From contig BCLD01000023.1 in assembly GCA_001600875.1 (NCBI GenBank), positions 85,836 to 149,835 of the forward strand: a DNA stretch of 64,000 bases. The letters run 5' to 3'. The stretch's first letter is position 1; every line of letters begins with the position of its first letter. Shown here piece after piece: positions 13,949 through 63,046 of the stretch. Below the pieces are notes generated by a model. It did no database searches and was not told the origin of the DNA. It saw only the letters and a list, made by a program, of their open reading frames with translations. The position numbers and the translations under genes are program-made. This DNA comes from Solicoccozyma terricola. Its lineage: Eukaryota > Basidiomycota > Tremellomycetes > Filobasidiales > Piskurozymaceae.

Positions 13949-14306
13949 AGACGCGCACAGTCTATAGCATCATTATCACTACCATGACGCACGTTTTATC
14001 CAACTTTTCGTCCTTGACGACTGATCTGCACCTTCTTTTCCCAGTCTTGAGATACGGAAATCGGGTGGTCTGGGGCCTGCGGGGGAGACCACGGGGGTAA
14101 TTGGGCCCAGCACTTCTCGCTAATACCACGGAAGTTTGACGGTTGAAGGAAGTCCGTCTCGATAGGCCAATCTCTCCGCCCGGCCTAAGCCGAATCGAGA
14201 GACATCTTCTAATACCCGCAAACTATTTAACTCAAGATGTGGTGTGATGGTCTCTCTACACCATCTACAACCCATTAGAACCTTCATCTCTACCAATCAG
14301 ACGACC
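13949..14306. other. Short intergenic spacer and aldolase promoter
   Basis: This spacer separates two genes on the same strand. An A/T-rich 'aactatttaac' at about 14221-14231 sits 75-85 bp before the chosen aldolase ATG and may act as its TATA element. A second in-frame ATG at 14247 would add 20 residues. Confidence 0.4.
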
Positions 14307-15607
14307 ATGCCCATCGCCGACTCCCCCATTTCCAGCTGGTTATCGAATCCCGTCCCAAGAGCTGCTATCAGTCATCCTCTTCACGGTGTCCACGTCCCTA
14401 CCCTCACATTTTTCAAAGAGGAAGCGGACGGAACTCAACCTATCGATTATGACGCTTATGGAGCTCACATCTTGTGGATGGCTAGTCAGGGGATTCATGG
14501 GTTCGTTTGTCAAGGAAGTACAGCGGAGGCAGTTGCTTTGAGTGCTGACGAGAAAATGAAGGTAAGTGAGGGCGTCTTTCATGCTGCGTTACGGTTGTCT
14601 GATGCGTCATCTCTCTGTTTTATGTCTTTGCTCTATCCACAGATTACTCGATTTACTAGAGATATCCTCGACAAGAACGGATACGAGCATCTACCAATCA
14701 CTGCTGGTAGCGGCGCTCAAACCACATGGGAAGCTGTGGAGTTGTGCAAACAAGCTGCCGAATCTGGTGCTCAGTACGCTATCTGTCTTCCTCCTAGCTA
14801 TTTTGCTCCATCTATGGGACAGGAGTCACTTATGGCGTACTATACCGAGGTTAGTCTTAAGGCTGTTAATCTATAACGACTCGTAGTCTGACTCCCCGTC
14901 CCCTTCTACAGCTCGCCGATAAATCCCCTATAGGAATCATGATCTACTCATGGCCAGGTGTCTCTTCAGGTCTTGAACTTACTTCAGACTCCCTTCACAT
15001 CCTTGCAAAACATCCTAACATCATCGGCGTGAAGCAAACTGATCACAACGTTGGAAAAATGGCTAGAGTCGTTTGGCAGAACAAGAGCGAGGAATGGACT
15101 GTTTTGGGAGGTGCTTCTGATTACTTCTTGTGAGCCAAAGACAGAGAGAGAGCATCTCACGATTCTTCTCTTCAGCGTATTACTGACCACTTGAACTGGA
15201 AAACAGAGCCGCACTTGCTGTTGGAGTACCGGGAACCATCACAGGTCTCGCCAATGTCACCCCTCGAGCTTGTATCCTGCTCTACGACCTGTTCCGAGCC
15301 GGTAGATTAGAAGAGGCTCGAGAGCTTCAGGGACAAATGAGTACTGCTGAGTGGTCATTACTCTCCGGTGGTATTCCCAGTATCAGAGTGAGTCGCCTTG
15401 GCCAAGAAGGAGACGGACTTGGAGGAAAATAATCTTGCTCTGCTCTCACAGACCGCTTGCAATATTTTTAGAGGTTACGGAGGTCTCCCTCGTCGTCCTC
15501 TCCCCCCTTCGCCGGAAAATATTGTCAAAAAAGTCAAAGAAATATTGGAACCAATGGTTACGCTTGAGGCTTCTCTTGTGAAGGCTGCAAAGTCGAATGC
15601 TTTGTAG
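14307..15607 (+). CDS. DHDPS/NAL-family 2-keto-3-deoxy-sugar-acid aldolase
   Basis: About five exons give a TIM-barrel protein of the dihydrodipicolinate synthase / N-acetylneuraminate lyase family. The phosphate/carboxylate loop is seen as CQGSTAEAVALS, the catalytic Tyr in IMIYSWPG, and the Schiff-base Lys in IIGVKQTD. GGASDYFL, LAVGVPGTITGLANV and a C-terminal GGLPRRPL follow. Fungal members such as the L-threo-3-deoxy-hexulosonate aldolases split 2-keto-3-deoxy sugar acids to pyruvate and an aldehyde. The dehydratase immediately upstream makes such a substrate, so this is the likely next step. Lysine biosynthesis is unlikely because fungi use the alpha-aminoadipate route. A start at 14247 is possible. 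Confidence 0.82.
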
Positions 15608-21789: not shown

Positions 21790-24351
21790 CTAAGTATTTG
21801 AAAACAATGATCGGTTGGCGCTGGGTCCGAAGCCGACCATGACATATCCGAGAACAGCTCCTCCGCCCCCTCCCTCTGGCGGACGGGATGGTCCTCCATC
21901 CCCTCTTCCATCCCCTCCGCCNNNNNNNNNNNNNNNNNNNNNNNNNNNNNNNNNNNNNNNNNNNNNNNNNNNNNNNNNNNNNNNNNNNNNNNNNNNNNNN
22001 NNNNNNNNNNNNNNNNNNNNNNNNNNNNNNNNNNNNNNNNNNNNNNNNNNNNNNNNNNNNNNNNNNNNNNNNNNNNNNNNNNNNNNNNNNNNNNNNNNNN
22101 NNNNNNNNNNNNNNNNNNNNNNNNNNNNNNNNNNNNNNNNNNNNNNNNNNNNNNNNNNNNNNNNNNNNNNNNNNNNNNNNNNNNNNNNNNNNNNNNNNNN
22201 NNNNNNNNNNNNNNNNNNNNNNNNNNNNNNNNNNNNNNNNNNNNNNNNNNNNNNNNNNNNNNNNNNNNNNNNNNNNNNNNNNNNNNNNNNNNNNNNNNNN
22301 NNNNNNNNNNNNNNNNNNNNNNNNNNNNNNNNNNNNNNNNNNNNNNNNNNNNNNNNNNNNNNNNNNNNNNNNNNNNNNNNNNNNNNNNNNNNNNNNNNNN
22401 NNNNNNNNNNNNNNNNNNNNNNNNNNNNNNNNNNNNNNNNNNNNNNNNNNNNNNNNNNNNNNNNNNNNNNNNNNNNNNNNNNNNNNNNNNNNNNNNNNNN
22501 NNNNNNNNNNNNNNNNNNNNNNNNNNNNNNNNNNNNNNNNNNNNNNNNNNNNNNNNNNNNNNNNNNNNNNNNNNNNNNNNNNNNNNNNNNNNNNNNNNNN
22601 NNNNNNNNNNNNNNNNNNNNNNNNNNNNNNNNNNNNNNNNNNNNNNNNNNNNNNNNNNNNNNNNNNNNNNNNNNNNNNNNNNNNNNNNNNNNNNNNNNNN
22701 NNNNNNNNNNNNNNNNNNNNNNNNNNNNNNNNNNNNNNNNNNNNNNNNNNNTCCCTCATCCCTTCCTCCAACCCTTCCTTGATCTCCTCCGCCCCCAGTC
22801 GCTGGCGGATTGGATGGTCCTCCGTCCCCTCTTCCATTCCCTCCGCGATAGGGAGGGGGCTCCGGAGGAACATTCCCTCTGCCAGAGAGAGCGGGAGAAG
22901 TGGGAGGAGGGGGAACAGCGGCATCGAGGCCACCTAGATAACTTGAGAGACGACTGTACTGGCTAACCTCTGGGTCGTCCAAGAAGGAGTTTTGGTCGGC
23001 CAAGCTGATGCAGAAGGTGAGATAGAGAGAGGGCCATGGCGGTCAATTCATCGCTCACAAGAAATCTACTGCACTGCAGAAACGTACTAGTGACTCATTA
23101 ACAAGTGGCCCGTCGCTCCTTCCCGAATGAAGATCCTTCCTCCAAACCTCCCCGGGACGATGTCGGGATACTCCCGCCTTTGTTGGGGAGGCCGGTGAGC
23201 GGGGGGACCAGGTGCGAACGCCAAGACGCCTGAAGAAGCCACAATCAATCAAAACAAAATCACTGTGGCAATGGCAACCATGTCCCACCTATGCATGCGA
23301 CAAAGTCTCGGGAGTTGGCGAAGTGCTCGACGTGGCGGAACGGCAGAGTCTTAGGATCGTCGCTGGGAACGCTGAAGTGGTTTGCAGCCGATGCGAAGGT
23401 GTAGATTTCAAGCTTTTGGAGCTCTCTAGGTGAGAAGTCGTTCAGAAGCTGGTCCTGAGGGGTTTCGAATGGCAAAATGGGTTAGCACCTTGAGCTGGCA
23501 ACAGGATACTTTGTGGTGGACTGACGACCCAGGCGGAGAGGATGATTCCACCTTGAGAGTGAGAGATGAGCACGACCCTCGTCTTCGCCGGGTCCCTGAT
23601 CTCCTGGCTTAGAATCTGGATAAGCCATGTTAATCAGATGAGGTGCAACGTTTCTTGGCCTAGAAGAAAAACTCGCCTGGTATCCCTCTCGAACATCCGT
23701 GGTGGGCCATAACAGGTCCCTCTGGATCATACATTCCACCAGGTCCCAAAATAGACCGTAAGTCCGATTGATTATCCCAACGACGGGGCGATGAAACATC
23801 GACTGCAGTCTATTGATGATAAGTTGAACACCGGAGGCCGAAGTTGCAACGCCGTTGATGCTGGGCGGCGTTGGAGAATAACTGTCAACGTCTCGGGGCA
23901 CCGAAAGGCCAGAGCACACAAGCCATGCTCACAAAAGCCAGGTCTCGTGTTGGTAAATAATTTTTCTTTGACGGTTATCCGGACCCGAATCCAGTCTTCT
24001 TGCCGGACCTTGAAGCCAGTTGGAGGACCACACCACGGCTCCAATGGCGCCACCAATTGCCAGATTACCAAGCGGGAAAAAATTTGCGACGATGCAGATG
24101 ATGGTCGCCAGAAAGGTAACTACGAACAACAGTCCTTGTCCCACCAGACCGCAAAAGGTGATATCAGTCCCGATACCAGGCCAAGATGTCAGGATGTTGA
24201 TGAACTGGGGAAGGTTAAGAATGATGCGGCCGATGTCATCCGTGAGCAGCTTCAATGGATGGCTACGGAGGTAAACCGGGCTATCATCAGGTGCCGATGG
24301 GTCGACGTCGAACACTACGACAGGGTGTTGGTCTCGTTGTTGACGTGACAT
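21790..24351 (-). CDS. Membrane-anchored serine alpha/beta hydrolase with Gly/Pro-rich repeat tail
   Basis: Exons join in frame from ATG 24351. Exon 1 encodes SHPLKLLTDDIGRIIL, then two hydrophobic segments (GQGLLFVVTFLATIICIVA and the following Gly/Ala-rich stretch), ending HETWLF. The next exon begins INGVATSASG and continues RPVVGIINRTYGLFWDLVEC. A GC-AG intron (23616-23676) precedes ILSQEIRD and the nucleophile elbow VVLISHSQGGIIL. Then come IYTFASAANHF, HVEHFANSRDFV and REGATGHLLMSHYLADQNSF. The layout fits an uncharacterised fungal lipase-like family. The tail is Gly/Pro/Asp-rich, built of units like GGNGRGDGGPSNPP, and is interrupted by an 830-base run of N. After the gap, GAVLGYVMVGFGPSANRS leads to a stop at 21790. 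The tail length is unknown. Confidence 0.72.
21922..22751. other. Assembly gap (N x 830) inside a minisatellite
   Basis: All bases are N. Both flanks carry the same GC-rich unit: 'gggatggtcctccatcccct' on the left and 'ttggatggtcctccgtcccc' on the right, each followed by 'cttcca'. The missing sequence is therefore very probably a tandem array of this unit of about 70 bp. The stated gap size may be an estimate. Confidence 0.9.
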
Positions 24352-27620: not shown

Positions 27621-30155
27621 ATGCTCCCCAACGAAAGCGGTCTCGATGGCTGGTTGCGTTACGCAGCCTTGCCTGAACATATCCGCTCAACATTCCACGA
27701 AACGTTTGCAACAATCATAGCGCTCAGCTCTGAGCCCACCAGCCCCGTCTACACCGCTGGTCAAGAGCTCCAACAAGGGATCAGCAAGATCCTAGGTCTG
27801 AAACTCGAGGTCCACTCGTCACTGGACAAAGCTCCGCCCGACTCTATCATCGTCGTCGGCACGGTGGACTCGCTTGCCGCGACTGGAAGAGACACATCCC
27901 AAGTCCCTCCATTGCAGAGAGAAGGCTTTTTCATCGACACTCGCTGCTCCAAGGTTCTCATCCTCGGTCAGGACGAGCGTGGAGCCATCTATGGTGCCTT
28001 TGAGTTCCTCTCCAAACTTGCCCAGGGTGACTTCGCACCTGTTACCAAGGCATTCAACCCGAGCTCTCCCATCCGCTTCGTCAACCTCTGGGACAACCTC
28101 GATGGCACCATCGAGCGTGGATATGCAGGCAAATCCATCCTGTGGAAGGACGGGTTCGTTCGCACCGACATGGACGACCGTATCAAGCAGTTCGCCAAAC
28201 TGCTTTCTTCGACTCGAGTCAACGGCTGTGTCGTCAACAACGTCAACGCTGGACCCGACCAACTTTCCACGGCCAACATGAAAGGTCTCAAGCGGATTGC
28301 AGACATCATGCGTCCTTACGGAGTGCGAGTCGGCATCTGCGTCTTCTTCGACTCTCCCACCGTGCTGGGTGGCCTCCCCACCTCGGATCCACTGGACCCG
28401 CACGTTCAGCAGTGGTGGACCAACAAGTTCAACGACATCTTCGAGTACGTTCCCGACTTTATGGGGGTCACTTATAAGGGAGACTCAGAGGGACAACCAG
28501 GACCGTTGAAGTGGGGTCGCACGATCCCGGATGGCGCCAATATGTTTGCGAGGGCTCTCAGACGTCACACCGACGCTTGGGTCATGGTTCGTGCCTTTGT
28601 CTACGATAAAATACAGGTGGACGACGCCAAGCGCGACAGGGCCATGGCGGCCGTGGACCACTTCAGACCTATGGACGGGCAGTTTGACGACAACGTAGTC
28701 GTGCAGATCAAATGGGGCCCCATCGACTTCCAAGTCCGCGAGCCTGTTTCGCCGCTGTTTGGTAACCTCAAACGGACCAACATGGCGATCGAGTGGCAAC
28801 ACTGCCAGGAGTACATGGGGCAACAAACGCACACGGTCTACATGGCACCGCTTTTCAGGAAAATCCTCGATTTTGATATGCGGGTGGACGGCAAGCCCTC
28901 TCGAGTCGCCGACATTATCCACTGCGCTCCTGGCAGCGGGAAAGTCAGCGGTTCGACCACTGTGCTCAACATCGGAGAGGACAGGACATGGATGGGCCAT
29001 CACCTCGCAATGGCCAACTTCTACTCATTCGGTAGACTAGCGTGGAACACCTTCGATGACCCCACCGAAGTCGCTCGAGACTGGATTCGGTTGACCTTTG
29101 GCACAAATCCAAAGGTCATGACTATCGTTGCCAAGATCCTCGCTGAGTCCTGGCCTGCGTACGAGGGTTACACCGGCAACCTCGGCATGCAGACCCTTGT
29201 CTCTTCCGCGGGCAGCTACAGCCCAACAGGCGGGTTTGACCCCCAGGCTACCAAAGGCGGGTCTCACTTCGGTCCTGACCCGGCCTACGCCGACTCTCCG
29301 AGGAATCACGGAGGTCACTACACTCGAGCAGGGAAAGATGCCATCGGAGTCGACCGCACTGTCAAGACTGGCTCTGGATTCGCGGGCCAGTACCCTGCCG
29401 AGGTCGCCGCCATTTACGAGGATCTCGAGACCTGCCCCGACGAGCTCTTGTTATGGTTCCACCACGTTCCTTGGACACATCAGCTGAGGTCTGGTAAGAC
29501 CGTGATCCAGCACATCTACGACTCGCACTACCAAGGATCCGAGGTCGTTCGCACGTGGTTGAAGGAGTGGGAGGGTCTTCAGGGCTTGGTCGACGAAGAC
29601 CGTTTCCGGCAGGTGGCATTCAAACTGCGCTTCCAAGCTGACCATTCCTTGGTCTGGAGGGACGCGGTCACCGGATACTTCTTCTCAAAATCTGGGCTCA
29701 TCGACGAGCACGGTCGCGTTGGCAATCATCCTTACCGAATCGAGGCCGAGGACATGGAGTTGGATGGCTACAATATCATCGACGTTGTACCGGTCGAGAC
29801 CGCATCGGGCGGCAAGGCGGTCGCCACCACCAACGGCGGCTCTGTCAAGACCGTCAACGACTTTGACTCTGGGGTCTACGACATCGCGGTCAACTATTAT
29901 GATCACGAAGGAGGCAAGTCCCGGTGGGAACTCTTTATCAACGATCTCTCGATCGGCAAGTGGAAGGGTGATATGGAGGAGGTCATGCTGCACAAGACGT
30001 CTGGTGGGATAAACGGGTGTTCCGCCACTCGCATCACATTTGACGGGGTGTCGGTGGATAAAGGGGATGTGCTCAAGATCACGGGGCAACCAGATGGGAT
30101 TGAGCAGGCGCCTCTGGACTATGTGTCGTTGTTGCCAGCTGGGATCGTTGATTGA
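27621..30155 (+). CDS. GH67 alpha-glucuronidase
   Basis: A single 844-residue open frame of full family length (about 840). It removes 4-O-methyl-D-glucuronic acid from the ends of xylo-oligosaccharides (EC 3.2.1.139). The N-terminal GH67 domain shows DSIIVVGTVDS and GFFIDTRCSKVLILGQDERG. The catalytic barrel has NLWDNLDGTIERGYAGKS. The acid Glu290 lies in YKGDSEGQPGP, and the two other active-site carboxylates are Asp369 in KWGPIDFQ and Glu397 in WQHCQEYMG. The C-terminal beta domain (from HPYRIEAEDMELDGY) is the one usual in fungal GH67. No secretion signal precedes the catalytic part, so it may act inside the cell on imported oligosaccharides, or a signal exon is missed. It has no introns, unlike almost all neighbours. 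The start at 27621 follows 'cgcccacc'. Confidence 0.95.
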   Translation: MLPNESGLDGWLRYAALPEHIRSTFHETFATIIALSSEPTSPVYTAGQELQQGISKILGLKLEVHSSLDKAPPDSIIVVGTVDSLAATGRDTSQVPPLQREGFFIDTRCSKVLILGQDERGAIYGAFEFLSKLAQGDFAPVTKAFNPSSPIRFVNLWDNLDGTIERGYAGKSILWKDGFVRTDMDDRIKQFAKLLSSTRVNGCVVNNVNAGPDQLSTANMKGLKRIADIMRPYGVRVGICVFFDSPTVLGGLPTSDPLDPHVQQWWTNKFNDIFEYVPDFMGVTYKGDSEGQPGPLKWGRTIPDGANMFARALRRHTDAWVMVRAFVYDKIQVDDAKRDRAMAAVDHFRPMDGQFDDNVVVQIKWGPIDFQVREPVSPLFGNLKRTNMAIEWQHCQEYMGQQTHTVYMAPLFRKILDFDMRVDGKPSRVADIIHCAPGSGKVSGSTTVLNIGEDRTWMGHHLAMANFYSFGRLAWNTFDDPTEVARDWIRLTFGTNPKVMTIVAKILAESWPAYEGYTGNLGMQTLVSSAGSYSPTGGFDPQATKGGSHFGPDPAYADSPRNHGGHYTRAGKDAIGVDRTVKTGSGFAGQYPAEVAAIYEDLETCPDELLLWFHHVPWTHQLRSGKTVIQHIYDSHYQGSEVVRTWLKEWEGLQGLVDEDRFRQVAFKLRFQADHSLVWRDAVTGYFFSKSGLIDEHGRVGNHPYRIEAEDMELDGYNIIDVVPVETASGGKAVATTNGGSVKTVNDFDSGVYDIAVNYYDHEGGKSRWELFINDLSIGKWKGDMEEVMLHKTSGGINGCSATRITFDGVSVDKGDVLKITGQPDGIEQAPLDYVSLLPAGIVD

Positions 30156-47886: not shown

Positions 47887-48132
47887 GTGTTAAGAAGAAT
47901 GGACTGGGATCTCTGCCTCAGCAACTATAGTAATGTTGAAGAGTTATAGTTACAAGAGAGCCTACCTGGGATCTCTGCCTCAGCAACTATAGTAATGTTG
48001 AAGAGTAGAGTGTTAAGAAGAATGGACTGGGATCTCTGCCTCAGCAACTATAGTAATGTTTAAGAGTTATAGTTACAAGAGAGCCTACCTGGGATCTCTG
48101 CCTCAGCAACTATAGTAATGTTGAAGAGTAGA
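47887..48132 (+). repeat. 123-bp tandem repeat, 2 copies (with 4 internal subunits)
   Basis: Each 123-bp unit holds two copies of a subunit starting 'gggatctctgcctcagcaac', so the subunit occurs four times at roughly 62-bp spacing. The copies differ by only a few bases (for example 'gttgaagag' versus 'gtttaagag'). Confidence 0.92.
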
Positions 48133-48322
48133 GAACCCATTTGGTGGTGGGGCGAGTAAAGCAGTAGAGATGGACGCGACGCAGCCATGATAACCTAGAC
48201 ACGTGAAGAGTGCCGATATTCAACATAGAGAACCCATTTGGTGGTGAGGCGAGTAAAGCAGTTGACATGGACGCGACGCAGCCATGATAACCTAGACACG
48301 TGAAGAGTGCCGATATTCAACA
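48129..48322 (+). repeat. 97-bp tandem repeat, 2 copies
   Basis: Two adjacent copies both begin 'tagagaacccatttggtggt' and end 'agtgccgatattcaaca'. They differ at about four positions. Confidence 0.92.
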
Positions 48323-48504: not shown

Positions 48505-49692
48505 TCACAACGCCTGAAGCTTAGCATCATACACGATCCCAGCCTGCTCGCGCGCCTGGTCCATCCATCCCAGGACTCTCAAACTCTCTTCCTCGTCGAT
48601 AACCTCGCCCGGCTCATTAACGTCCCCCGCCCGCTGCCTCGCCAGGACCCTCGCCGCAATAGCATCAGCCTGATACCAAATCCCCCACCCACGCTCCACC
48701 GGTTTGAATATGATTTCATCCTTCTCGATACCGTCCGCTTCCATGTGGCTATCGTCGTACCACTGGATGTGCAGTTCCTGCGGGCGGATTGGCGGGAATG
48801 GAATGGATACGGAAGCCTTTGTCGCTTCGATTCGCACGGCTGGACCAGCCTTTGTCGCTTGAAGGCGTTCGTAGAAGTCCGGTTTGCTGGAACCCGGGAG
48901 AGTCATGCTGGTAGTCACGATAGCGACCGCCTGTTGCTTCTTCGTGTTGTTCTCCTGCTTTGATAGAATGACAGTGTTGATATCATCCACATCCCCAGGA
49001 ACGCCAGGGACGCTCATCGAGTTCGCATGAACAACCTCGGTCGTTGTGTTTGTTCCTTCTAGTCCATTGAGTGCCAAGTCCGCCCACGTCAACGCGTACA
49101 CGCCTTGATCCAACAAACTGCCCGCTCCAGCTTGCTTGTCCAAGAACCTCGATCCATGCGATAGATCTGGGGATACAATGGGGAAGCTGAACTCGGCGTA
49201 GACACGCTTGACATCGCCGATGCGTGGCAACAGCTCTTCCTTGAAGTACCTCGTCGCAGGGAGGTACCGCGTCCACATTGCTTCCATCAGCACCACGCCG
49301 TTTTGTTTCGCAAGCGACGCCAATCTGGCGTACTGGGCACGATTCATGGTCGAGGGCTTCTCCACGAGAACATTGCGCTTGAATTGCAGCGCCTTGCGGA
49401 CGTGTTCGTAGTGCAAAGGGTGCGGGGTTGAAACGTAAACAATGTCAAAGTCGCCCTTCTCCAGCATCTCCTCCCAGGAGTGGTAGAGTTTGACCTGCTC
49501 AGGGTTTGGTATCCCTTTGTCACTGAGCCAGGAGGAAGCGCGAGATGAAGAGCCGGTAGTGCTGACCGCGACGAGGGAGTGGTGGATGGATTCGGATGGT
49601 GGACGAGGGAGAAGCAGGTCGGGAAGAAAGACTGCAGCTATGCTTGACAGTGAGAGGGCTGCCCAGCGGCACTGAGATCGTGCTTCGGTCAT
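48505..49692 (-). CDS. Gfo/Idh/MocA-family NAD(P)-dependent sugar dehydrogenase
   Basis: A single exon of 395 residues. The order is that of dimeric dihydrodiol / D-xylose dehydrogenases: a Rossmann strand RWAAL, then DLLLPRP, DIVYVSTPHPLHYEHVRKAL, the signature NVLVEKP with catalytic Lys112, VVLMEAMWTRYLPATRYFKE, SRFLDKQAGAGSLLDQGVYAL and a C-terminal helix ending QAREQAGIVYDAKLQAL. The usual Gly-rich GxGxIA loop after the first strand reads SLSSIAAV here, with no glycine, which is unusual for a functional dinucleotide site. It is divergent from a sugar transporter (606 bp between starts). Bacterial levoglucosan dehydrogenase belongs to this superfamily, which fits the kinase at 53946. The substrate is inference. 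Confidence 0.85.
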   Translation of the reverse strand: MTEARSQCRWAALSLSSIAAVFLPDLLLPRPPSESIHHSLVAVSTTGSSSRASSWLSDKGIPNPEQVKLYHSWEEMLEKGDFDIVYVSTPHPLHYEHVRKALQFKRNVLVEKPSTMNRAQYARLASLAKQNGVVLMEAMWTRYLPATRYFKEELLPRIGDVKRVYAEFSFPIVSPDLSHGSRFLDKQAGAGSLLDQGVYALTWADLALNGLEGTNTTTEVVHANSMSVPGVPGDVDDINTVILSKQENNTKKQQAVAIVTTSMTLPGSSKPDFYERLQATKAGPAVRIEATKASVSIPFPPIRPQELHIQWYDDSHMEADGIEKDEIIFKPVERGWGIWYQADAIAARVLARQRAGDVNEPGEVIDEEESLRVLGWMDQAREQAGIVYDAKLQAL

Positions 49693-50298
49693 TAATTAGG
49701 AGACTGGAAGGAGACTGGATTTTTGAATTCGACAAATGATGTGGCCTACATCGACTTCTCGTTCACAATCTCTCGATATATCCCGAGTTGACATCCATCC
49801 AGAGCTACAGTAGCGGGTCGCCGTTGCAGCCCGCAGCTCCGCTTGAATTGGAACCACTCTTGCCTCAAACTGCAGTTTCTGTAATTCCAGTTTACAATTA
49901 CCAGCTGTTTAAGCGCCCTCGGAACCTCGGTCTGCCAAGCTTCCGAGTACCCTTTAGCAGCGTTTTGGCAGCTTTTAGCAGCTTTTCCCGATGCGCGGTT
50001 TAGCAGGGATCTCGCCACGGATCCGTTGTTCACGTGTTCGGCGGCTTCGTATCTACCCTGTCCTCCTACTCCACTGCTCCTCAGAGCAGTTTAGCAGAGA
50101 TTCCAATCCCGGGGAGATCCCACGGGGTCGCGGATTGGATAACTCTGGAGTTGACTTATCTTGAAAGGCACTATAAAGTGGATGATCCTGGGGTCCCCTT
50201 CAATTGCAGGTCTCCATTTACCCTCACACAGCAACCCATCAGCGACTTCGACACTCCCTGCATACAACCAAACACCTAACAGCATTCCAGACATCCCA
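49693..50298. promoter_or_regulatory. Divergent promoter of dehydrogenase and sugar transporter
   Basis: The 606-bp spacer lies between two divergent starts. On the transporter side a TATA box (50172-50177) lies 127 bp before its ATG. The central part has repeated 'ttttagcagc' and 'tttagcag' phrases at 49952-50002 and 50090-50097. It is a plausible shared control region for the putative anhydrosugar genes. Confidence 0.55.
50172..50177 (+). promoter_or_regulatory. TATA box of the sugar transporter gene
   Basis: 'tataaa' in the context 'ggcactataaagtgg', 122-127 bp before the ATG at 50299. Confidence 0.55.
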
Positions 50299-52022
50299 AT
50301 GATGGTCAAGCTCTGGCAGCATGTGCCTGGCAAGGCGCTCCTCCTCAATCTCTTCACGGCCATTGCCCTCATTTTTGAAGGTTACAACCAGGGAGTCCTC
50401 GGTACCGTCAGCCAAACACCGGGCTTTATCGAAATGTCCGGGATTGGAACCAATGGTGTAGTCACCGATACCACAAAGCAAGGTGGTCTGGCTGCGGCGT
50501 ACTACTTTGGTGCGATGTGGGGATGCTTCATTGGAGGTGAGATTGGGATTTATCTGTCTTCATCATGACAGAAGCTAACGGGAGGCCTCCCACCACAGGA
50601 TGGCTCGGTGACAAGCTCGGCCGAAAGAAGGGAGTCTGGCTAGGCTCACTCTTCTGCCTGACCGGGGCTGTTTTGATGTCTGCCAGTCAGAACAGCGACA
50701 TGTTCATCTGCGCGCGTGTCATCGCCGGTGTCGGTATCGGCTTCATCAACGCCATCATCCCGCCCTGGGTCAGCGAGCTGTCTCAAGCACACGACCGAGG
50801 CGCAAACTTCTCGCTCGTCTTTGTCGCAAACTTTGTCGGCATCGTCATCGCGTATTGGCTCAACTTTGCCGTTCGCTCGACGGGCATCGAGTTTCAATGG
50901 CGATTCCCGCTCGCGTTCATGACCGCTCCGATGCTCATCGTCATCCTCACCGTCGTCCTTCTTCCCGAGTCTCCTCGTTGGTTGATGGCCAACAACCGCC
51001 GAGAAGAAGCGATCGATATCATAGCCAAGATCCGCGGTGATTTGGAACCAACCGACCCCAAGCTCATGATCGAAGTGCAGCAGCTCGAGGCCATCATCGA
51101 GGCATCTTACCATAAACGAAACGATTATATTAACCTCTGCCTCGGCGGTCGCTACTCTGGCAAATTGCATCTCGGTCGACGTGTCGTCATGGGTCTCCTT
51201 CTCCAGCAGATCCAGCAGTGGACAGGTATTCTCGCCATCGCCACCTGGGCAGGAACGCTATTCAAACTCGCAGGGTTTGACGCGGGGAAGGCTGCCTGGT
51301 TGGCGGGATTGGTCAACACGTTTGGTATCTTCGGAACGGCAGCAGCGTCTTTGGTTATCGATCGCATGGGCCGCATCAAGTCCTTGATGGTATCCTTCAT
51401 CACTCAAGGCATCTCATTGTTCCTTGTCGCCGCTTTCATGAAGACGTCGCAGGATCTACAGGAATCAAACCCTTTGGTGGCAACGAAGCTAGGTACCGTG
51501 GCGGCCGTATTCGTCTTCGTTTTCCTCTGGTTCTTCACCATGTTCAACATCGTGCCTTGCTGGATCTACGGTACTGAAATCTGGCCTCAGGAAGTCCGTG
51601 CCAAGGGCTACTCGTTTACCATTCTCGGGTGGGCCATCGGGTGCGGCATGAACACATTCGTCATTCCCATCATGCTTTCAAAACTGGGCTGGGCAACATT
51701 TGTTTTCTTCGGATGCATGAACATCATCGCCATGCCGGTCATCTGGTATTTCTACCCCGAGGTTGCAGGCAAGACTCTGGAAGAGGTCAACTTGCTGTTC
51801 ACCAGTGACAGCTTGCTTGTGAGCGAGAACATGAAGGAGTATCATCGTCGATTGGAAGAGGCCGATGGGAGTGTGGCTGTTGCAGCTCGTCGCCTGCTCG
51901 ATGAGGTCGATGGCACTACTCACCTCGACCCGAGGAGGGTGTTGGGGAATGTTCAGGAAGTTGGATTGAGCGTTGGAGAAGGAAAGGGGGAAGAGAAGTT
52001 TGATATCGCCCACCTCTCGTAA
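50299..52022 (+). CDS. MFS sugar transporter (sugar porter family)
   Basis: Two exons (50299-50536 and 50599-52022) give about 550 residues with 12 helices. Sugar-porter signatures are GYNQGVLGTVSQTPGF in helix 1, GDKLGRKKGVWLGS between helices 2 and 3, RVIAGVGIGFINAIIPPWVSE, PESPRWLM at the end of helix 6, LQQIQQWTGI in helix 7, DRMGRIKSL, and EIWPQEVRAKGYS as a variant of the YPxExR motif. The protein should act as a plasma-membrane sugar/proton symporter or facilitator. ATG 50299 is used, with a second Met codon next to it. It is divergent from the Gfo/Idh/MocA gene and followed by an SDR and a levoglucosan kinase, so an anhydrosugar or its parent oligosaccharide is a plausible cargo. Confidence 0.9.
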
Positions 52023-52522
52023 AGATGGTCAGCTGAGGCGGAGGAGGAAGATGGCGGGAGCGAGGCGAGCGAGGTCGTTCAGGTTTGGGAAATTGCATGT
52101 ACACCTTCTGGGACTGTTTGGTAGTCGTTAGACTATTGTGATTATATCGATTCTTCAATGTCTTGTGTCGAGCAAAGTCTCAATGTGCCAGGTCGTTCCT
52201 AACTCTTTTGGCCTTTCACCTCAAAAGATACCTATACGTGGACACGATCATTGTCCTGAGTTGGCGAGCTGCCACCAGCAGGGGTGAACGAGGAAGATGA
52301 GAATGAGAATGTCCCTGTCACCGCTGCTCTGTAACCACAGCATTGCTCTGAGGCATTGCTCTGAGGTCGATCTTATTCGAGGGAGTCATGCTGAAAATTC
52401 CGCGCATATTCGTTTCATGACGTCCATTTCGCACTGCCGGAGGTTTTCCCATACGGTTTGGATGGGTTTTGTACATCGTTCCAACTAATCATGATCATAT
52501 ACCACGAAAGATGGGCATACAT
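52023..52522. other. Intergenic between convergent genes
   Basis: No coding exon is seen. A duplicated phrase 'attgctctgaggca / attgctctgaggtc' lies at 52342-52369. Otherwise nothing is recognised. Confidence 0.5.
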
Positions 52523-53441
52523 TCATTGCAAGATAGCGGCGTGCTTGTACGTACTTGCCCCTCCGTCTACCAGCAAATCTTGACCGGTATACCATCCACT
52601 GGCCCTGTCACAGCATAGGTACAAAACGGCGCCCTTCAATTCATCCGGCAATCCAATCCTTCCAAACAGCGTCTCCTTTTCAAACTGCCTTACCAAATCC
52701 GGAGCCTGCTTCTGCAGCCCCTTCATCATATCCGTCATCATATACCCCGGACTCAAACTGTTAACGCGGATGCCATACCGTGCAAGCTCCATAGCCAACG
52801 GTTTCACGAGCCCTTTGATGGCGGCTTTGGACGCCGTGTAGCAGCTGATGTGTTGGACAGTGGTGGAGATGTACGTGGCTATACTTGCGATGAAGATGAT
52901 TGTTCCGGTGTTTGGTTCGGTGGCGAGTGAGGAGCCATGGTGTGACTCGTAGCGCTTTACCATGCTGTTAGCACATGCCTGGGCAACTAGGAAAGAGCCT
53001 GTAAAGTTGACGCCAAAGGTGGATTGAATGTTCTTGTCTGATGTGGTGAGGAAAGGCTCATCGGTGACCACGCCTGCGGCATTGATATTGATGTCGATGG
53101 AGGGGAAGGAGGATTCGATGCGGGAGACGACTTGCAGGACTTGATCTCTCGAGGTGATGTCTGTCTTGTAGTATTCCACTTTGACGTTGTATCGGGATCT
53201 CAGCTCGAGGAGCGCAGGAGATGGCTCGGCCAGGATATCGAGTACGGCAAGGTTGCAGCTTGCGGATGCGAGGGCTTCGGCGAATGCCAGTCCCAATCCC
53301 CTTGCTGCTCCGGTCAGAACAGCAGTCTTTCCTTGTAGAGAGAACTACGGGAACATATTATATCAGCTGCAAGCGTTTGAAAAGAGGGAAGGGGGGAGGG
53401 GGGGGAGGCGGGTCCTAGCGACTCACTAGGTCTGTGGCCAT
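52523..53441 (-). CDS. Short-chain dehydrogenase/reductase (SDR)
   Basis: A five-codon first exon (MATDL, from 53441) and a main exon joined through FSLQGKTAV give about 270 residues. The cofactor motif TGAARGLG is at residues 16-23, followed by INAAGV (NAG motif variant), the catalytic Ser in IIFIASIATYIST, the YTASK pair, and the SPGYMMTDM segment. The C-terminus reads LCCDRASGWYTGQDLLVDGG. The classical SDR fold oxidises or reduces a hydroxyl or keto group, often of a sugar or polyol, with NAD(P). It sits between the sugar transporter and the levoglucosan kinase, divergent from the latter, so it may handle an oxidised sugar intermediate. Specificity cannot be read. The first intron contains a C/G-rich homopolymer tract. 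Confidence 0.88.
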
Positions 53442-53945
53442 GGCGACGGAGTGGCGACTAGAGTGCTTGCGTGGAAATCGGGGCAATTCTTTATTTGCCT
53501 ACACAACTCGCTGGTTCTCAAGCGCAGAAAGGGTATTTAGAGGTGATACGCATCCGGGTACCAGCTGTAACCCCGGACCAACCTCCACGTCCACCTCGGA
53601 GGCCCTGCAATCTGGTTCAACTGCTAGCTGAAGAACCTGTTAAAGGCCTGAGCGGGCGAAAATTCGCCACCGCCCAACTAAACGCCGCGGTGGCGAGACA
53701 CTGCTAAAGACTGTTGTACCTGGTAAAGCGTAGACCAGTGGCTATACCGGTTCAATGCGTACCGAGTCTCTGCGCTGATCGTTCCGCCGGGAGACTGGAG
53801 GGAGCTGATTGCCATGGGCACAGGTCAAATGAGTTGAAAGAAACGAGGGTTGGCACCTTCGATCTTGATTTTCGGTATTTCAACACCAAACATCCCTCAC
53901 CAAGCAAATCTCACTCACGACAATATCGCCAATCAACACACCATC
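53442..53945. promoter_or_regulatory. Divergent promoter of SDR and levoglucosan kinase
   Basis: The spacer of 504 bp between the two starts has no coding exon. It contains CGG/CCG triplets, for example 'tcggaggccc' near 53601 and 'ccgccgggagac' near 53783, of the type bound by Zn2Cys6 proteins. No particular pair can be assigned. Confidence 0.4.
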
Positions 53946-55892
53946 ATGGTCATTCCCACTCAATACCTCAATGGCCAAATCTCGGCACCTCTCGACATGA
54001 TCGTATGTGGTATGAACAGTGGTACTAGCATGGACGGTATCGACATGGCCCTCTGTCGTTTCCGCCAGCAGTCTCCAGAGGAACCCATGCACTTTGAGCT
54101 CTTGAAGGTGAGAGTTTTTCGGAATGTGACGTGAGCTTGGGTAATGGCTAATGTGCATCCCCTATCAGTACGGTGAAGTGCCGCTGGAGCAGACCATTAA
54201 GAAACGAGTCATGAATATGATTCTGCACAACAGCACCACTCCCGAAGAGCTCTCCGAATGCAATGTCCTGCTCGGCGAAGCCTTTGCCAAGGCTTTCAAC
54301 GAGTTTTGCAAGCACGAGAATATTGACAAGTCCACCGTTGATGCGATTGGGTCGCATGTGAGTCCGAACGTGCCTTTGCCCGGGGTTCTGTCACCGACGC
54401 AGGGCTCTGTCTGGGTTTCAGGGACAAACCATTTGGTTGCTTTCCATGCCCGAAGAAGGTCAAGTCCAGAGTGCGCTCACAATGGCGGAGGGGACCTTCA
54501 TAGCTTCGCGGTGAGTAGAGAGGCACTGTTCTTATTCACCTATGAAAATCAATCCACTCATATCATCGTCCCTCCAGTACCGGCGTCACCACTGTCACCG
54601 ACTTCCGAGTCTCTGACCAAGCAGCAGGCCGTCAGGGTAAGGCCCACATTGCGCTCCACCTTTCTTCAACTCACGTCCTGCATTATGGAATACAGGCGCA
54701 CCACTCATCGCCTTCTTCGACGCATTGCTCCTTCACCACCCAACTAAACTTCGTGCCTGCCAGAATATTGGTGGTATCGCCAACGTCTGCTTCATCCCAC
54801 CGGGTGAGAATGGAGGAGTTGAGGCCTGTTATGACTTTGACACTGGGTAAGCCCAAATGCCGTGAACACTCTCATCGCATAGATGCTGAAAGGCGTAGCG
54901 CGGCGGTATGAATTGTAGACCAGGGAATGTCTTCATCGATGCTGCTGTCCGTTTCTATACGAATGGAGAGAAGGAGTATGATCGGGACGGGGAGATGGGT
55001 AAACGAGGAAAGGTCGATCAAGAGCTGGTCGATGAGTTCTTGCAGTTCAAGTACTTCAAGTTGGATCCGCCAAAGACGTGAGTAGCAACATTGTCTATGA
55101 GACTGTCATCAGCTTGGATATTGACTAGTTGGGAAAAAAAAAATCACAGAACCGGCCGAGAAGTATTCCGAGACACTATGGCGTTCGAGCTCATCAAGAA
55201 GGCAGAGGCAAAGGGTAAGGTTATGTCCAGGCTCGTCCCTAGGTTCCACAAGCTGAAAATATCCCGTCGCTCCACACCGCCATCAGGGCTTTCACCAGAC
55301 GACATCGTCGCCACCATCACCCGTATCACCGCTCAAGCCATCGTCGACCACTACCGACGATACGCACCCAGCCAGGATATCGATGAGATCTTCATGTGCG
55401 GAGGTGGTGCTTATAACCCCAACATGTGAGTGTGACGCTACTATTCACCTTGCAGTGTTGTATCTTACGATGACCCAAACCCTTCATAGCACCGATTTTA
55501 TCAAGAAGAGCTACCCGAATGCTAAGGTTTACATGCTGGATGCTGCGCATGTCCCGGCAGGTGCCAAGGAGGCTATCACCTTTGCCTGGCAGGGAATGGA
55601 GGCCATCGTCGGTCGATCGATTCCTGTGCCTACGCGGGTGGAGACTCGAGAGCCATATGTACTCGGCAAGGTGAGTTGAGTCTTTTGCAGATACCGAACC
55701 TGCACGTTACTCATCCTCTACCGACGCCCTCAGGTCAACCCTGGAAAGAACTTTCGACAGACCATGACCAAAGGAATCTCCTTTGCCGCCGGCCACAAGG
55801 AGCTACCATGGGTCACCAAGATGATCAACTACCTAGATGGGCAGGAGGTTTCGTGTCTGGACATAACGGCCAAGGAGATAAGGATGGCTTGA
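53946..55892 (+). CDS. Levoglucosan kinase (AnmK-family sugar kinase)
   Basis: Eight or more exons join in frame to about 440 residues. The ATP-binding signature [10 protein letters not shown] is at residues 24-33, followed by [13 protein letters not shown] sequence after the first intron ([15 protein letters not shown]). Then come [14 protein letters not shown], the catalytic Asp in [15 protein letters not shown], and [14 protein letters not shown]. Further on are [37 protein letters not shown] and [18 protein letters not shown]. Yeast members of this family open levoglucosan (1,6-anhydro-glucose) with water and phosphorylate it to glucose 6-phosphate (EC 2.7.1.232). The bacterial relative AnmK acts on anhydro-N-acetylmuramic acid, a bacterial wall product, which is unlikely here. 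The enzyme is soluble, with no signal peptide. Confidence 0.9.
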
Positions 55893-56179
55893 GGGGATGT
55901 CTGGCTTGCTGGATCATACATTGTACCATAACTCTGCATATTCTACGTGATTTCATCTCCTAACGACTGTTCCTGGGGTGGCCTCTCCTGACCCAACAAT
56001 GTCAAGTGCTGTCGACGACGCCAGACGATGACCAGGTTCTGATAAAGCCTTTGCGACGTGCCTCGATTACATGTGCTGATGCTCCTCGGAAGCTCAACCG
56101 CCCCACGCCAAGTAACCAGATGATATAATTCTTCCCGCACAGCTTATAGCTTACAACCGATACTCGCAAAATCCCAAGT

Positions 56180-59100
56180 TCAACCCGATCCAAAGAAACT
56201 ATCAAACACGGTCCCTTGGTTTGTATCAAACGGCCAATACTGTAGCAGATCATCAGGCAACGTCACGGGAGAGTGGGCAAACTCGCTCATAACGTTGTTG
56301 TTGGCCCAAGTCATGAAGTCGGTGTCGTTGGGGTTCCAAATCTCCATCTCGCCAATGTTGCCGCTGCCGCTGCCGCTGGCGTTAGAGGTGTTCGTAGGGA
56401 TGGTCGGGTCCTGCGCAGGCTACGTGATAGGACAACGTCAATACCTGGCATGGGAAGGAGACGCACCCACTCCCTCGCCGAGACTCACCATCATATACGA
56501 CCCATCTCCCGCATGCGCCCGATGCATCGACCCATCATGCTGCGCCGAGTCTTTCGCTTCCGTCAAGTGAACTGCATGAAACACTTGCCTATCCGACCGT
56601 CTTGCCTCTGCAGCCGACTGCATGAACGCGTCGATTCGAGCCACATGCTGGGAGAGACGAACGCTCGTTCCAGCTGCGAACTTGAGACTCGACTCGAGGG
56701 TGGCGAGGAGTTTAGCAAAGGCGAGCCTGGAGGTGGGGTTGAGTGTTGAGTGTAAGTCATATGAATCGGGGGGTTTGCTCATAGGACCAGAGGTACGTTA
56801 CAAGATCTGTCGAGTTTGAAGGTACGCGCTGATGGTCAAAGGGGATTGCACGACACTGCCTAGGAGGTTTCCTATTCCAGCTAGATGGTGCAGCTGATGG
56901 AAAGAGGAGGGAGCGGGGCGGCATGCGTCAGCTACAACGGGCGGCGTGGTGGTCGTGTCATCTCTGAATTCCTCACGAAAGGTGCGCTGATAGCTTGCAT
57001 ATACGCCGTAGGGATGTTATCGAGCGCATCGAGCAACTCTCCCGCGATGGAGCAACGTTCCGCCATGGACACGGTTCCCGAGCATGATACTGCCATCTTG
57101 ACTGTCTGTGGAAGGGGAACGAAAAGATATTGTCCCATCAGTCACCCCCCCCCCCCCCCCCCCCCCTCTCAAATCCCCCATCCCACCTACTTGCAGCGTG
57201 ACGATGATATTTGCCGCCTGAAAACTATACATATCCAAAGCTGCATCCCCCGTCATGACCTTTGTCTCCTTGAACACGCTCGGAAGCTCATCAAACATCC
57301 TCTGAACCATAGGCATGATTGCATCGATCTGTAGACCTGGTTTCACGATTGGAGTGGGTATACCAGGCGGACGAACGAGTGTCCTTTCCCAGTGTAGCGA
57401 ATCCAACGTGTGTTCGAGGATTCGATAGAGGTCGGTAGTAAAGTTCCATCCTCTCATCCATGAGACTTGAAAAGTCGCATCGGTCCCTGTCGATGACGAC
57501 GACGACGACGATTCGAATTCTTCATCCGGATATGCTACCATACTCTGAGATTCCCGATGTCGAACGACGCCATTCCACACCATTGCATGAAAGACATCCA
57601 GAGTGTAGATTGACCAGTACTGTTAACCGGGTGCGTCCGCCAGCCAACCCCCGACCCGACCCCCGCATCAGCGTGTCAACTCGGACGGGATACGACGTTT
57701 TCCGATAATCTCCAGGCCGCACTCACCAACATCCTCCTCTCCTGCTTTTCCATTTCACTCAACCCTGATGGCCATTGACTTTCATCATGAAATCCTTGCA
57801 ACGCTGATAACCCTAAATACCTCCCCAATTGAATATTCAATTGTTGAAAATCCCCATTCTGAATGGCAAGAATCGCTAATAACGCCGTGGCTCTGAGGTA
57901 ATCAAAACTCAATGTAGCTTCGTATGCTTCCACGGGGATCGAATCCAGTGCTGATTTTCTAAGATGATCTGAATCGACGAGAGCAGCTAACCGATCTGCT
58001 TGAGCGACTACGGGTGATGATGATGATGGTGATGATGATGACGATGAAGGATTATCTTTGACCAGTTGAGAACAAGCTCCATCTCGAAGTCTGGCTGCTA
58101 CTATCGCGCATACAGCTAGAACTGTCGCTTTGAATGCTCGATCCGAGTCTTGACGACGTCGTTGAACGTCTGAGATGAAGGATGGCCAGTGGAAGAAGCA
58201 GAATCTGGGGGATACCGCGTCGTCCGTTTCAAATAAACCCGCCGAGAGGGTGCACACATTTCAGCGTGGAGAAACATTTGGAAAACAGGGAAAAGCGGGT
58301 TTCGAGATCGGGGGGTGTTCAAGCCGGTCCGCTCACATAGGATAAACCAACACCCGATACAGTTCCACCAATTCCAAAATGGTCTCGATACGCGGCGTAT
58401 CAACAACTACCGTGTTCCTTTCATCTTTCCCATTCCTGTGTATTCCTTCAACCACCACATCAGGTGGAGAAGAGATATTGGATGTTCCTCTTCCTGTTCC
58501 TGTTCCTGTTCCTGTTCCTGTTCCTTGTTTTCCGAGGCCTTTTTGAATCTATCCGACGACCAACGGATCGATATGGGTGGGTGGGTGGGGGACATACGCC
58601 ACATCTCTAAGACGGGCACTCTTGCACTCACCCCGCGTTTCTTCTGTGGTCGATCATATGTACATTGTTCACCGAAATCGAAACATGGCTGACAGACTGG
58701 ACTTGATGCGACGATAGGAGTGCACTGGGGGGGGGGGGGGGGGGGGGTTGAATAAACGAAACTCCCGATTTGATCAGTTAACCCGTACGGAAATCATCTT
58801 CGAGAAAGAAAATAAAACGATCAAATACTCACTTTATTCCCCATCCGATGACAACGATCACAAGCTCTCTACACGCCCATCCCATCGCCCAGAAGAGACC
58901 GACCGACCGACCGACCGACGCACCACGCAACCCAAAAAAACCCAACATCAGAAGCGGAAGCGGACCAGACGATATGAGCGCGCGCCGCTAGCCCGGACCG
59001 TTTCACCCACCGAGACCCTCTTCCGCTTAGCGCCGCCGCATAGGGATAGACCACCACTGGATGATGCGGAAGAAGGGAAGAGGACAGAGGTTGGTGGCAT
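56180..59100 (-). CDS. Zn2Cys6 transcription factor next to the kinase
   Basis: From ATG 59100 the first exon gives MPPTSVLFPSSAS... GGAKRKRVS. The next two exons complete the cluster as ACDRCHRMGNK|CTPIVASSPVCQPCFDFGEQCTYDRP: C-x2-C-x6-C-x9-C-x2-C-x6-C, with an intron just before the third Cys. Downstream exons encode a fungal_trans-like helical region (FHWPSFISDVQRRRQ; LGRYLGLSALQGFHDES; ERRMLVSAAWRLSENVV) and a C-terminus with EIWNPNDTDFMTWANNNVM ending SFFGSG. Two introns carry very long G runs on the sense strand (17-20 bases; plus-strand C run at 57150-57166 and G run at 58731-58747). It is convergent with the levoglucosan kinase and is the natural candidate regulator of that cluster. 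Exon borders around 56750-57000 are uncertain. Confidence 0.78.
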
Positions 59101-61498: not shown

Positions 61499-63046
61499 AT
61501 GGCCACCATATCAGGCGTGTCAGGCAATCAGTTTGTTCATGGAACGAAAGACTACCCCGACTGGAGGTACCAATACGCAACTTCGAGCTACGAATACGAC
61601 CATGACATGAACCCGGGCCTCATTGTACAGCCCAAGGGCAAAGATGACATCAAGCGTGTGGTCACATACGCCAGAGACCAGAAGGTCGCTATTGCCATTC
61701 GAACTGGAGGCCACCAATACAGCGGTGCGTCATCTACTAGCCGGCCCAACATTCAACTGGACCTAAGGTCAACTTTTCAAGGGTCCGACGACTTTTTCTA
61801 CTCGGACAAGGGCGACAAGAGCTACGTGCGCGCCAGTGTCAGCTGGAGCCTCGGCCAATTCAACGCATTTCTCGGCCAGTACAAGGCTTTCGTCCCTCAC
61901 GGACAATGCGTCGGGGTGCATCTTGGAGGTCATGTCCAGACCGGCGGTTACGGCCAGCTTGGCCGCAGTTTCGGCCTCCTCGGAGACCACATTCTCTCGT
62001 TGGAAATTATTGACCACGACGGCAATGAAAAGGAGATCACCAAGGCCAGCGATCCTGAGCTCTTCCATGCCTGGTTGGGAGGCAGTCCCGGAAATCTCGG
62101 CGTGCTGACCCATTTCACACTCGAGGTCCACCGCGACGGCGACTATATCGGCTCTCGGGGCCTGAGAGCACTTCACCTGTACGACAAGGACAAGCTCAAG
62201 GAGCTTTTGACCTACTTGGCGGAGATGAACGACACAGAGGACTTCCCACGCAACTATGACCTCTGCGTCAGCGTGCTGAGCGCCTCATTTGACATTCTCG
62301 GCTTGATGGGCGGCCTAGACGACGAAATGAAGAACGCCCATCCCGAAATCTTCGGCAAGGATGGCAAGCCTTTCTGGCCACGCATGATTGTCGTGTACGC
62401 GCAGTGGGTGCCATTCTCCAAAGACGACAAGCCCGACATGGCATGGTTCGAGAGGCTTCGGTCGTCGTCCTGGTTTTCGACCGACGTGCAGGCGAAGCCC
62501 ATGTCGGAGCTGACAGCAGACTGGATCTTCCGCAACACGCGCGAGTTCGACATGCCGTACGTCAAGCGCACATACCTGACCAAGTCGACGTCGCTCAGCA
62601 CCAACGGCTGGGCCAACTGGGTCGTGGAGCGCATGAACGAGATTGTCGAGCCCATCGACAACGACTGCTGGCTGTCGGCGCAGCTGCAGGTCTTCGGTGG
62701 CAAGTACTCCCGCTTCACTACAAACGCCGACAACGGCACCGCGTACAGCTGGCGCGACTCGACGCTAGCAATGACCATCGACTGCTTCCACAAGCCTGCC
62801 GCCAGGGACAAGGCTGAAGAGTGGCAACGCATCAACGATGAGCAGGGTATCGGTCCCAATGCCATGTTCAGCGAGCAGGACCGCCGAGTACTGTGGGGCT
62901 CATACGGCGACTGGGACATGGACACGGCCTGGCAGAACTACTATGACGACCGCGCCAAGTATGAGAGGCTTATGCGGGCGAGAAAGGTGGCTGACCCTAA
63001 TGGTACCTTCACTCCGAACCCATTCTGCGTGAGACGTGCCGACTGA
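61499..63046 (+). CDS. FAD-linked oxidase, berberine-bridge-enzyme-like
   Basis: A single exon of 515 residues. The FAD_binding_4 domain (residues about 40-215) has AIRTGGHQYSG with His72, and HGQCVGVHLGGHVQTGGYG with Cys137. These fall at the places where His and Cys bind FAD covalently in berberine-bridge-type enzymes, so bicovalent flavin is likely. LGDHILSLEIIDHDGNE and GSPGNLGVLTHFTLEVH follow. The C-terminal BBE-type segment is AKYERLMRARKVADPNGTFTPNPFC. There is no signal peptide; the protein starts MATISGVSGNQFVHG. The enzymes oxidise sugars or secondary metabolites with O2 and release H2O2. The gene is intronless and GC-rich in third positions, and lies between retroelement fragments, so horizontal transfer is possible. 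The substrate is unknown. Confidence 0.88.
   Translation: MATISGVSGNQFVHGTKDYPDWRYQYATSSYEYDHDMNPGLIVQPKGKDDIKRVVTYARDQKVAIAIRTGGHQYSGASSTSRPNIQLDLRSTFQGSDDFFYSDKGDKSYVRASVSWSLGQFNAFLGQYKAFVPHGQCVGVHLGGHVQTGGYGQLGRSFGLLGDHILSLEIIDHDGNEKEITKASDPELFHAWLGGSPGNLGVLTHFTLEVHRDGDYIGSRGLRALHLYDKDKLKELLTYLAEMNDTEDFPRNYDLCVSVLSASFDILGLMGGLDDEMKNAHPEIFGKDGKPFWPRMIVVYAQWVPFSKDDKPDMAWFERLRSSSWFSTDVQAKPMSELTADWIFRNTREFDMPYVKRTYLTKSTSLSTNGWANWVVERMNEIVEPIDNDCWLSAQLQVFGGKYSRFTTNADNGTAYSWRDSTLAMTIDCFHKPAARDKAEEWQRINDEQGIGPNAMFSEQDRRVLWGSYGDWDMDTAWQNYYDDRAKYERLMRARKVADPNGTFTPNPFCVRRAD

What the first reader, a model, noticed from the sequence alone, without database searches (positions are those of the whole stretch)
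48505..59100. Putative fungal levoglucosan (anhydrosugar) utilisation cluster
Seen: an MFS sugar transporter, a Gfo/Idh/MocA dehydrogenase, an SDR, a levoglucosan-kinase-family gene and a Zn2Cys6 regulator lie side by side, with two divergent promoters. Known: yeast levoglucosan kinase converts levoglucosan to glucose 6-phosphate, and bacterial levoglucosan dehydrogenase is a Gfo/Idh/MocA protein. Inference: kinase and oxidative routes may be combined in one co-regulated fungal cluster, which I do not recall being described.
Basis: partly seen in the sequence, partly recalled or inferred. Interest (0 to 1): 0.78.

Follow-up and report, generated by a model that had tools for sequence, protein, structure and literature searches.

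The report
Fungal sugar-kinase cluster with shared switch
A fungus carries five neighbouring genes (a sugar importer, a levoglucosan kinase, two dehydrogenases and a regulator) whose promoters share a short DNA motif that also marks a second kinase-importer locus, which points to a regulated way of using burnt-cellulose sugar, although the substrate is not proven.

Summary
The proposed union of the kinase route with a bacterial-type oxidative route is not supported. GFO is far below the levoglucosan-dehydrogenase cut-off, is closest by sequence to dihydrodiol dehydrogenase, and belongs to a fungal subfamily whose glycine-rich cofactor loop reads RWAALSLSxIA. GFO and MFS form a gene pair in many other fungi; LGK was not linked to them in the lists compared, so its place here looks lineage-specific. 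New support for co-regulation: TTTAGCAG occurs four times in the GFO-MFS promoter, once (plus two one-base variants) in the SDR-LGK promoter, and three times before the genome's closest MFS paralogue, which lies about 3 kb from a second, intact LGK gene. It is the most repeated 8-mer in both MFS promoters (0 of 1000 shuffles match). Best reading: an inducible levoglucosan-type uptake-and-phosphorylation regulon joined to an older transporter-oxidoreductase pair. Substrate, induction and the binding factor are inferred, not shown.

The parts
48505..49692 (-). GFO: Gfo/Idh/MocA protein, 395 aa, one exon; RWAALSLSSIA in place of the glycine-rich loop
49693..50298 (.). divergent promoter GFO/MFS with four TTTAGCAG copies (49953, 49974, 49999, 50090; + strand)
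50299..52022 (+). MFS sugar porter, 553 aa, exons 50299-50536 and 50599-52022
52523..53441 (-). SDR, 278 aa, exons 53441-53427 and 53344-52523
53442..53945 (.). divergent promoter SDR/LGK with TTTAGCAG (53701, - strand) and variants TTTAACAG (53637) and TTTACCAG (53720), both - strand
53946..55893 (+). LGK: levoglucosan kinase, 450 aa, 10 exons
56180..59100 (-). Zn2Cys6 transcription factor, 678 aa, 10 exons

Best explanation
This is an inducible anhydrosugar (levoglucosan-type) utilisation cluster. The MFS porter brings the sugar in; LGK phosphorylates it with ATP while opening the 1,6-anhydro bridge, giving glucose 6-phosphate for glycolysis. A Zn2Cys6 activator, most likely the neighbour at 56180-59100, switches on both head-to-head gene pairs, and the MFS2 gene of a second LGK2-MFS2 locus, through TTTAGCAG elements. 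GFO and MFS are an older fungal gene pair; GFO and the SDR act on the sugar itself or a related sugar or keto-sugar in a side or salvage step. Shown: gene identities, GFO-MFS linkage elsewhere, the shared element and the second locus. Inferred: substrate, transport, which factor binds the element, and the reactions of GFO and SDR.
For: LGK 732.5 bits to solved Lipomyces levoglucosan kinase against 137-171 bits to AnmK structures, and below all 14 listed AnmK equivalog cut-offs. Two loci in this genome each hold an LGK and an MFS: LGK2 is intact, and its MFS2 is this MFS's best-scoring paralogue in the genome. TTTAGCAG: 4 copies GFO-MFS, 1 SDR-LGK, 3 before MFS2; most repeated 8-mer in both MFS promoters; 0 of 1000 shuffles had an 8-mer with at least 3 and 2 copies in those two. 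Whole-genome search for spaced pairs: 9 places, control 4; 3 in this cluster and 1 before MFS2. The 21 other fetched MFS loci hold 1 exact copy in all.
Against: No expression, binding or enzyme data. GFO-MFS occurs in other fungi without LGK nearby in the lists compared, so MFS may carry another sugar. The LGK2 promoter itself has no copy of the element, and the SDR-LGK promoter has only one exact copy; the variants were admitted after looking. Five of the 9 spaced-pair places have no link to sugar genes that I could see. GFO and SDR are not needed for the kinase route.
Confidence: 0.5

Rival explanations
1. GFO-MFS is a stand-alone module for another sugar (for instance an aldose oxidised at C1, as D-xylose dehydrogenases do) under an XlnR-like lignocellulose regulator. 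LGK and the SDR share the same general switch because plant sugars and pyrolysis sugars occur together; there is no single-substrate pathway.
For: GFO-MFS share 17 contig lengths in other fungi against 0 for GFO-LGK and MFS-LGK. UniRef names given to GFO relatives are D-xylose 1-dehydrogenase. The element's reverse complement CTGCTAAA is one base from the XlnR site GGCTAA plus A (passages). One more exact copy lies 536 bp before a GH67 alpha-glucuronidase gene.
Against: Spaced element pairs were found before the two LGK-linked MFS genes and in the SDR-LGK promoter rather than widely. The single copy before GH67 may be chance.
Confidence: 0.32
2. Neighbours by chance: two or more unrelated gene pairs lie side by side without common function.
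For: No five-gene linkage seen in other species in the lists compared. The GFO, MFS and LGK trees differ and the LGK tree is largely unresolved.
Against: Shared element in both divergent promoters and before MFS2.
Confidence: 0.13
3. One reading: LGK plus a bacterial-type oxidative levoglucosan route (levoglucosan dehydrogenase and follow-up enzymes) in one cluster.
Against: GFO 38.7 of 650 bits needed, 23.9 bits to 6a3f; altered cofactor loop; none of the 8 AP_endonuc_2 matches is in the window.
Confidence: 0.05

Closest known systems
Levoglucosan kinase of Lipomyces starkeyi (PDB 4yh5, 4zlu and others)
   Same: Same kinase type, 75% identity over 94% of the query, 732.5 bits
   Different: Here the gene sits beside a transporter, two dehydrogenases and a regulator, with a shared promoter element; the neighbours of the Lipomyces gene were not seen
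Bacterial lgd pathway (LGDH, LgdB1, LgdB2, LgdC) of Bacillus smithii (PMC7676230, passages)
   Same: Also a sugar-transport and Gfo/Idh/MocA gene cluster for levoglucosan
   Different: GFO is not LGDH by score; no AP_endonuc_2 gene in the window; a kinase is present instead
Dihydrodiol dehydrogenase / fungal D-xylose dehydrogenase branch of Gfo/Idh/MocA
   Different: RWAALSLSxIA in place of the DHDH loop RWGIVSVGLIS
XlnR-type regulation of biomass genes (PMC6323846, passages)
   Same: Zn2Cys6 protein in the cluster; element resembles GGCTAA
   Different: Kinship of this regulator to XlnR was not tested; the element differs at one core base

Membership tests
Levoglucosan kinase (fungal LGK) | Sequence closer to solved LGK than to AnmK | tested here: met
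   732.5 bits to 4yh5 against 171 bits or less to AnmK chains; below all 14 listed AnmK cut-offs
Levoglucosan kinase (fungal LGK) | ATP-dependent activity on levoglucosan | not testable with these tools
   needs enzyme assay
Levoglucosan dehydrogenase (LGDH) | Reaches the NCBIfam LevoglcsnDh (NF052479) cut-off | tested here: not met
   38.7 bits, cut-off 650
Bacterial lgd pathway | LgdB1/LgdB2-type gene (taken here as AP_endonuc_2, family recalled) in the cluster | tested here: not met
   8 matches in the genome, none in the window; the nearest, C23:43618, is under the cut-off
Gfo/Idh/MocA family | Pfam domains over cut-off and fold | tested here: met
Gfo/Idh/MocA family | Glycine-rich dinucleotide loop | tested here: not met
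   A11, S14, S16 invariant in 17 of 17 aligned sequences (query and 16 of the 120 listed hits)
Zn2Cys6 transcription factors | Six-cysteine array and Fungal_trans domain | tested here: met
   CX2CX6CX9CX2CX6C; Fungal_trans 45.7 bits over 23; Zn_clus 19.7 bits, just under its cut-off of 21
Fungal catabolic gene cluster | Linkage kept in other species | tested here: inconclusive
   GFO-MFS 17 shared contig lengths, GFO-LGK 0, MFS-LGK 0 in best-120 lists; SDR and regulator not compared
Fungal catabolic gene cluster | Co-induction by one substrate | not testable with these tools
   Only a shared promoter element was shown

The most novel reading that the evidence does not exclude
A dedicated fungal levoglucosan regulon: two unlinked LGK-MFS loci under one TTTAGCAG-binding Zn2Cys6 activator, to which a GFO of a subfamily with an altered cofactor loop (alanine and serines in place of glycines) and an SDR have been recruited for a further anhydrosugar or keto-sugar step. 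It would name a native eukaryotic transporter, kinase and regulator for levoglucosan, and GFO would be an oxidoreductase subfamily that holds its cofactor in an unusual way, or has none.
Probability: 0.35. Interest if true: 0.66.

Novelty: new variant of a known kind. Interest (0 to 1): 0.5.

Why it matters
Levoglucosan is the main sugar of fast-pyrolysed cellulose, and its transport limits engineered yeast (PMC9476349: abstract, Background and one Results section seen). An MFS paired with LGK at two loci, with a shared promoter element, gives named candidates for a transporter and a regulator and a direct test. Separately, a conserved fungal Gfo/Idh/MocA subfamily without the usual glycine-rich loop, with members named D-xylose dehydrogenase, is a clear question for enzymology.

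Tried and rejected

Fungal synteny by DNA: no fungal genome collection other than the window's own genome is on hand. A scan of viral contigs with the GFO alignment found no relative. A scan of prokaryote genomes with a 10-row LGK alignment gave 40 loci, at most 39% identical, mostly from Melainabacteria and kin; I did not read their surroundings. I used contig lengths and locus tags printed in the protein lists instead. These show only the longest contig of each cluster and only the best 120 of each search, so absence of LGK linkage is weak evidence. Counter-example to the GFO-MFS pair: Exophiala mesophila, B0A52_02756 and B0A52_09008, on contigs of different length.

Horizontal transfer of GFO-MFS: in a quick tree this MFS falls with Penicillium pulvis (support 90) apart from Tremellales sp. 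Uapishka_1; in the GFO tree it falls with unnamed metagenome sequences, apart from both; the LGK tree places the query weakly. The trees used 46, 45 and 44 of the 120 listed hits. Too weak to claim.

Inverted element pairs: two places in the genome, none at these loci; control one. Gal2p channel residues: I tried by eye to map them on this MFS, found the alignment ambiguous and dropped it. Literature: seven searches with the word levoglucosan and one on fungal AnmK listed no paper that describes a fungal levoglucosan gene cluster; several of these listings showed only 10-20 of hundreds or thousands of papers, and only open-licence papers are held. PMC9394295 (Aspergillus oryzae RNA-seq on pyrolysis condensate) was seen as a listing only and may bear on induction.
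Full report
Observation. The window is part of contig C23 of a 23.9-Mb genome in 33 contigs. Exon models rebuilt from the sequence give five complete genes: GFO 49692-48505(-), MFS 50299-52022(+), SDR 53441-52523(-), LGK 53946-55893(+) and a Zn2Cys6 regulator 59100-56180(-). All introns of the final models are GT..AG. Pfam assigns the expected domains, with Zn_clus slightly under its cut-off.

Kinase. LGK is a fungal levoglucosan kinase by sequence: 732.5 bits to the solved Lipomyces enzyme 4yh5 against 137-171 bits to bacterial AnmK structures, and below all 14 listed AnmK equivalog cut-offs. The best 120 of its hits are 72-81% identical over the aligned part. A study gave six fungal LGK/AnmK proteins to S. 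cerevisiae; the Rhodotorula one had clear levoglucosan kinase activity in extracts, the others were near the control (PMC9476349, sections 3 and 14 read). The genome holds two more LGK sequences. LGK2 on C10 is intact, 464 aa, about 50% identical, with one intron at the place of intron 1 here. The other is a 1108-bp, 95.8% identical fragment on C26, some 3 kb from a reverse-transcriptase-like frame whose Pfam score is under the cut-off.

GFO. The dehydrogenase is not a levoglucosan dehydrogenase by score: 38.7 bits against a cut-off of 650, and 23.9 bits to 6a3f against 79 bits to dihydrodiol dehydrogenase 2o48. In 17 aligned sequences (the query and 16 of the 120 listed hits) the loop that normally carries glycines for NAD(P) reads RWAALSLSxIA or a near variant; A11, S14 and S16 are invariant, as is E111-K112-P113. 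The predicted model (mean pLDDT 77.6, pTM 0.81) keeps strand, loop and helix there and the family fold. So it is a conserved subfamily, not a broken gene. Whether it binds a dinucleotide is open.

Gene pair in other fungi. From the longest contig lengths printed for the best 120 hits of each search, GFO and MFS share 17 lengths (shifted controls: mean 0.4, largest 2), GFO-LGK 0 and MFS-LGK 0. Locus tags are adjacent in Cadophora sp. M221, Vermiconidia calcicola and Salinomyces thailandicus, and three apart in Elasticomyces elasticus and Tremellales sp. Uapishka_1; Exophiala mesophila is an exception. LGK proteins listed for some of the same species lie elsewhere, for example Cadophora IFR05_006523 and Elasticomyces LTR66_004500. 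So GFO-MFS is a widespread module, and LGK beside it looks particular to this lineage, as far as these lists show. SDR and regulator were not compared across species.

Shared promoter element. TTTAGCAG occurs 6 times in the 64-kb window against 1.36 expected (largest of 100 shuffles 5); 4 copies are in the GFO-MFS promoter and 1 in the SDR-LGK promoter. A whole-genome search for two such elements in one orientation 4-34 bases apart gives 9 places, control 4. Three are in these promoters. One is on C10 before an MFS gene, where three exact copies end 284 bp before the start codon. That MFS2 is this MFS's best-scoring paralogue in the genome; its start codon is 2.9 kb from that of LGK2, with an ARMT1/DUF89 damage-control phosphatase gene between them. 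TTTAGCAG is the most repeated 8-mer in both MFS promoters. In 0 of 1000 dinucleotide shuffles did any 8-mer have at least 3 and 2 copies in them, and the largest total of an 8-mer present in all three promoters was 4 against 8 observed. Of 25 MFS loci fetched, the 21 that are not these two genes hold one exact copy in all (not every promoter lies inside those stretches). The five other places are a 19-bp tandem repeat on C7 (2), one each in long reading frames on C11 and C22, and one on C8 in a 161-aa frame of unknown status. Against: the LGK2-DUF89 promoter has no copy.

Mechanism. The evidence fits uptake by MFS, one-step conversion to glucose 6-phosphate by LGK, and common control by one factor. 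The adjacent Zn2Cys6 protein is the natural candidate; its binding is not shown, and its own upstream 600 bp hold no shared copy. The reverse complement CTGCTAAA is one base from the XlnR site GGCTAA followed by A (PMC6323846, passages), so an XlnR-like lignocellulose regulator is an open alternative; another exact copy lies 536 bp before a GH67 alpha-glucuronidase gene. GFO and the SDR (nearest solved relative a gluconate 5-dehydrogenase entry, 127 bits; no NCBIfam cut-off met among the 25 best shown) have no assigned substrate.

Compared with the known. Two papers state that fungi use the kinase route and bacteria the oxidative one (PMC10066097 and PMC7676230, passages). Nothing found here overturns that. 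None of the 8 AP_endonuc_2 matches in the genome is in the window. Seven searches with the word levoglucosan and one on fungal AnmK listed no description of a fungal levoglucosan cluster or its regulator; several listings showed a small part of the papers that matched, and only open-licence papers are held.

Verdict. Real cluster, real LGK, good sequence evidence for common control and for a second LGK-MFS locus. The dual-route idea is not supported and the substrate is unproven. New variant of a known kind, interest 0.5.

Noticed in passing
L010/L011 (G000 C10, about 1015060-1021300): Second locus with intact LGK2, an ARMT1/DUF89 damage-control phosphatase gene head to head with it, and MFS2 with three TTTAGCAG copies. 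The phosphatase may clear unwanted sugar phosphates (inference).
   Followed up: partly
L008/L009 (G000 C26:106451-107556): A 1108-bp, 95.8% identical fragment of the LGK gene (exon 4 to just past exon 9), without both ends, near a reverse-transcriptase-like frame: a recent partial copy.
   Followed up: partly
window 27621-30155: GH67 alpha-glucuronidase gene with one TTTAGCAG 536 bp before its start codon.
   Followed up: partly
window 14166-14876: Dihydrodipicolinate synthase family frame; the window is rich in carbohydrate-type genes.
   Followed up: no
window 61502-63046: FAD_binding_4 oxidase gene, one exon, 514 aa, just outside the cluster; possibly a sugar oxidase.
   Followed up: no
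window 47887-48322: Two tandem duplications (2 x 123 nt at 99%, 2 x 97 nt at 97%) just downstream of GFO.
   Followed up: partly
window 21922-22751: A run of N, so the sequence is unknown or withheld there.
   Followed up: no
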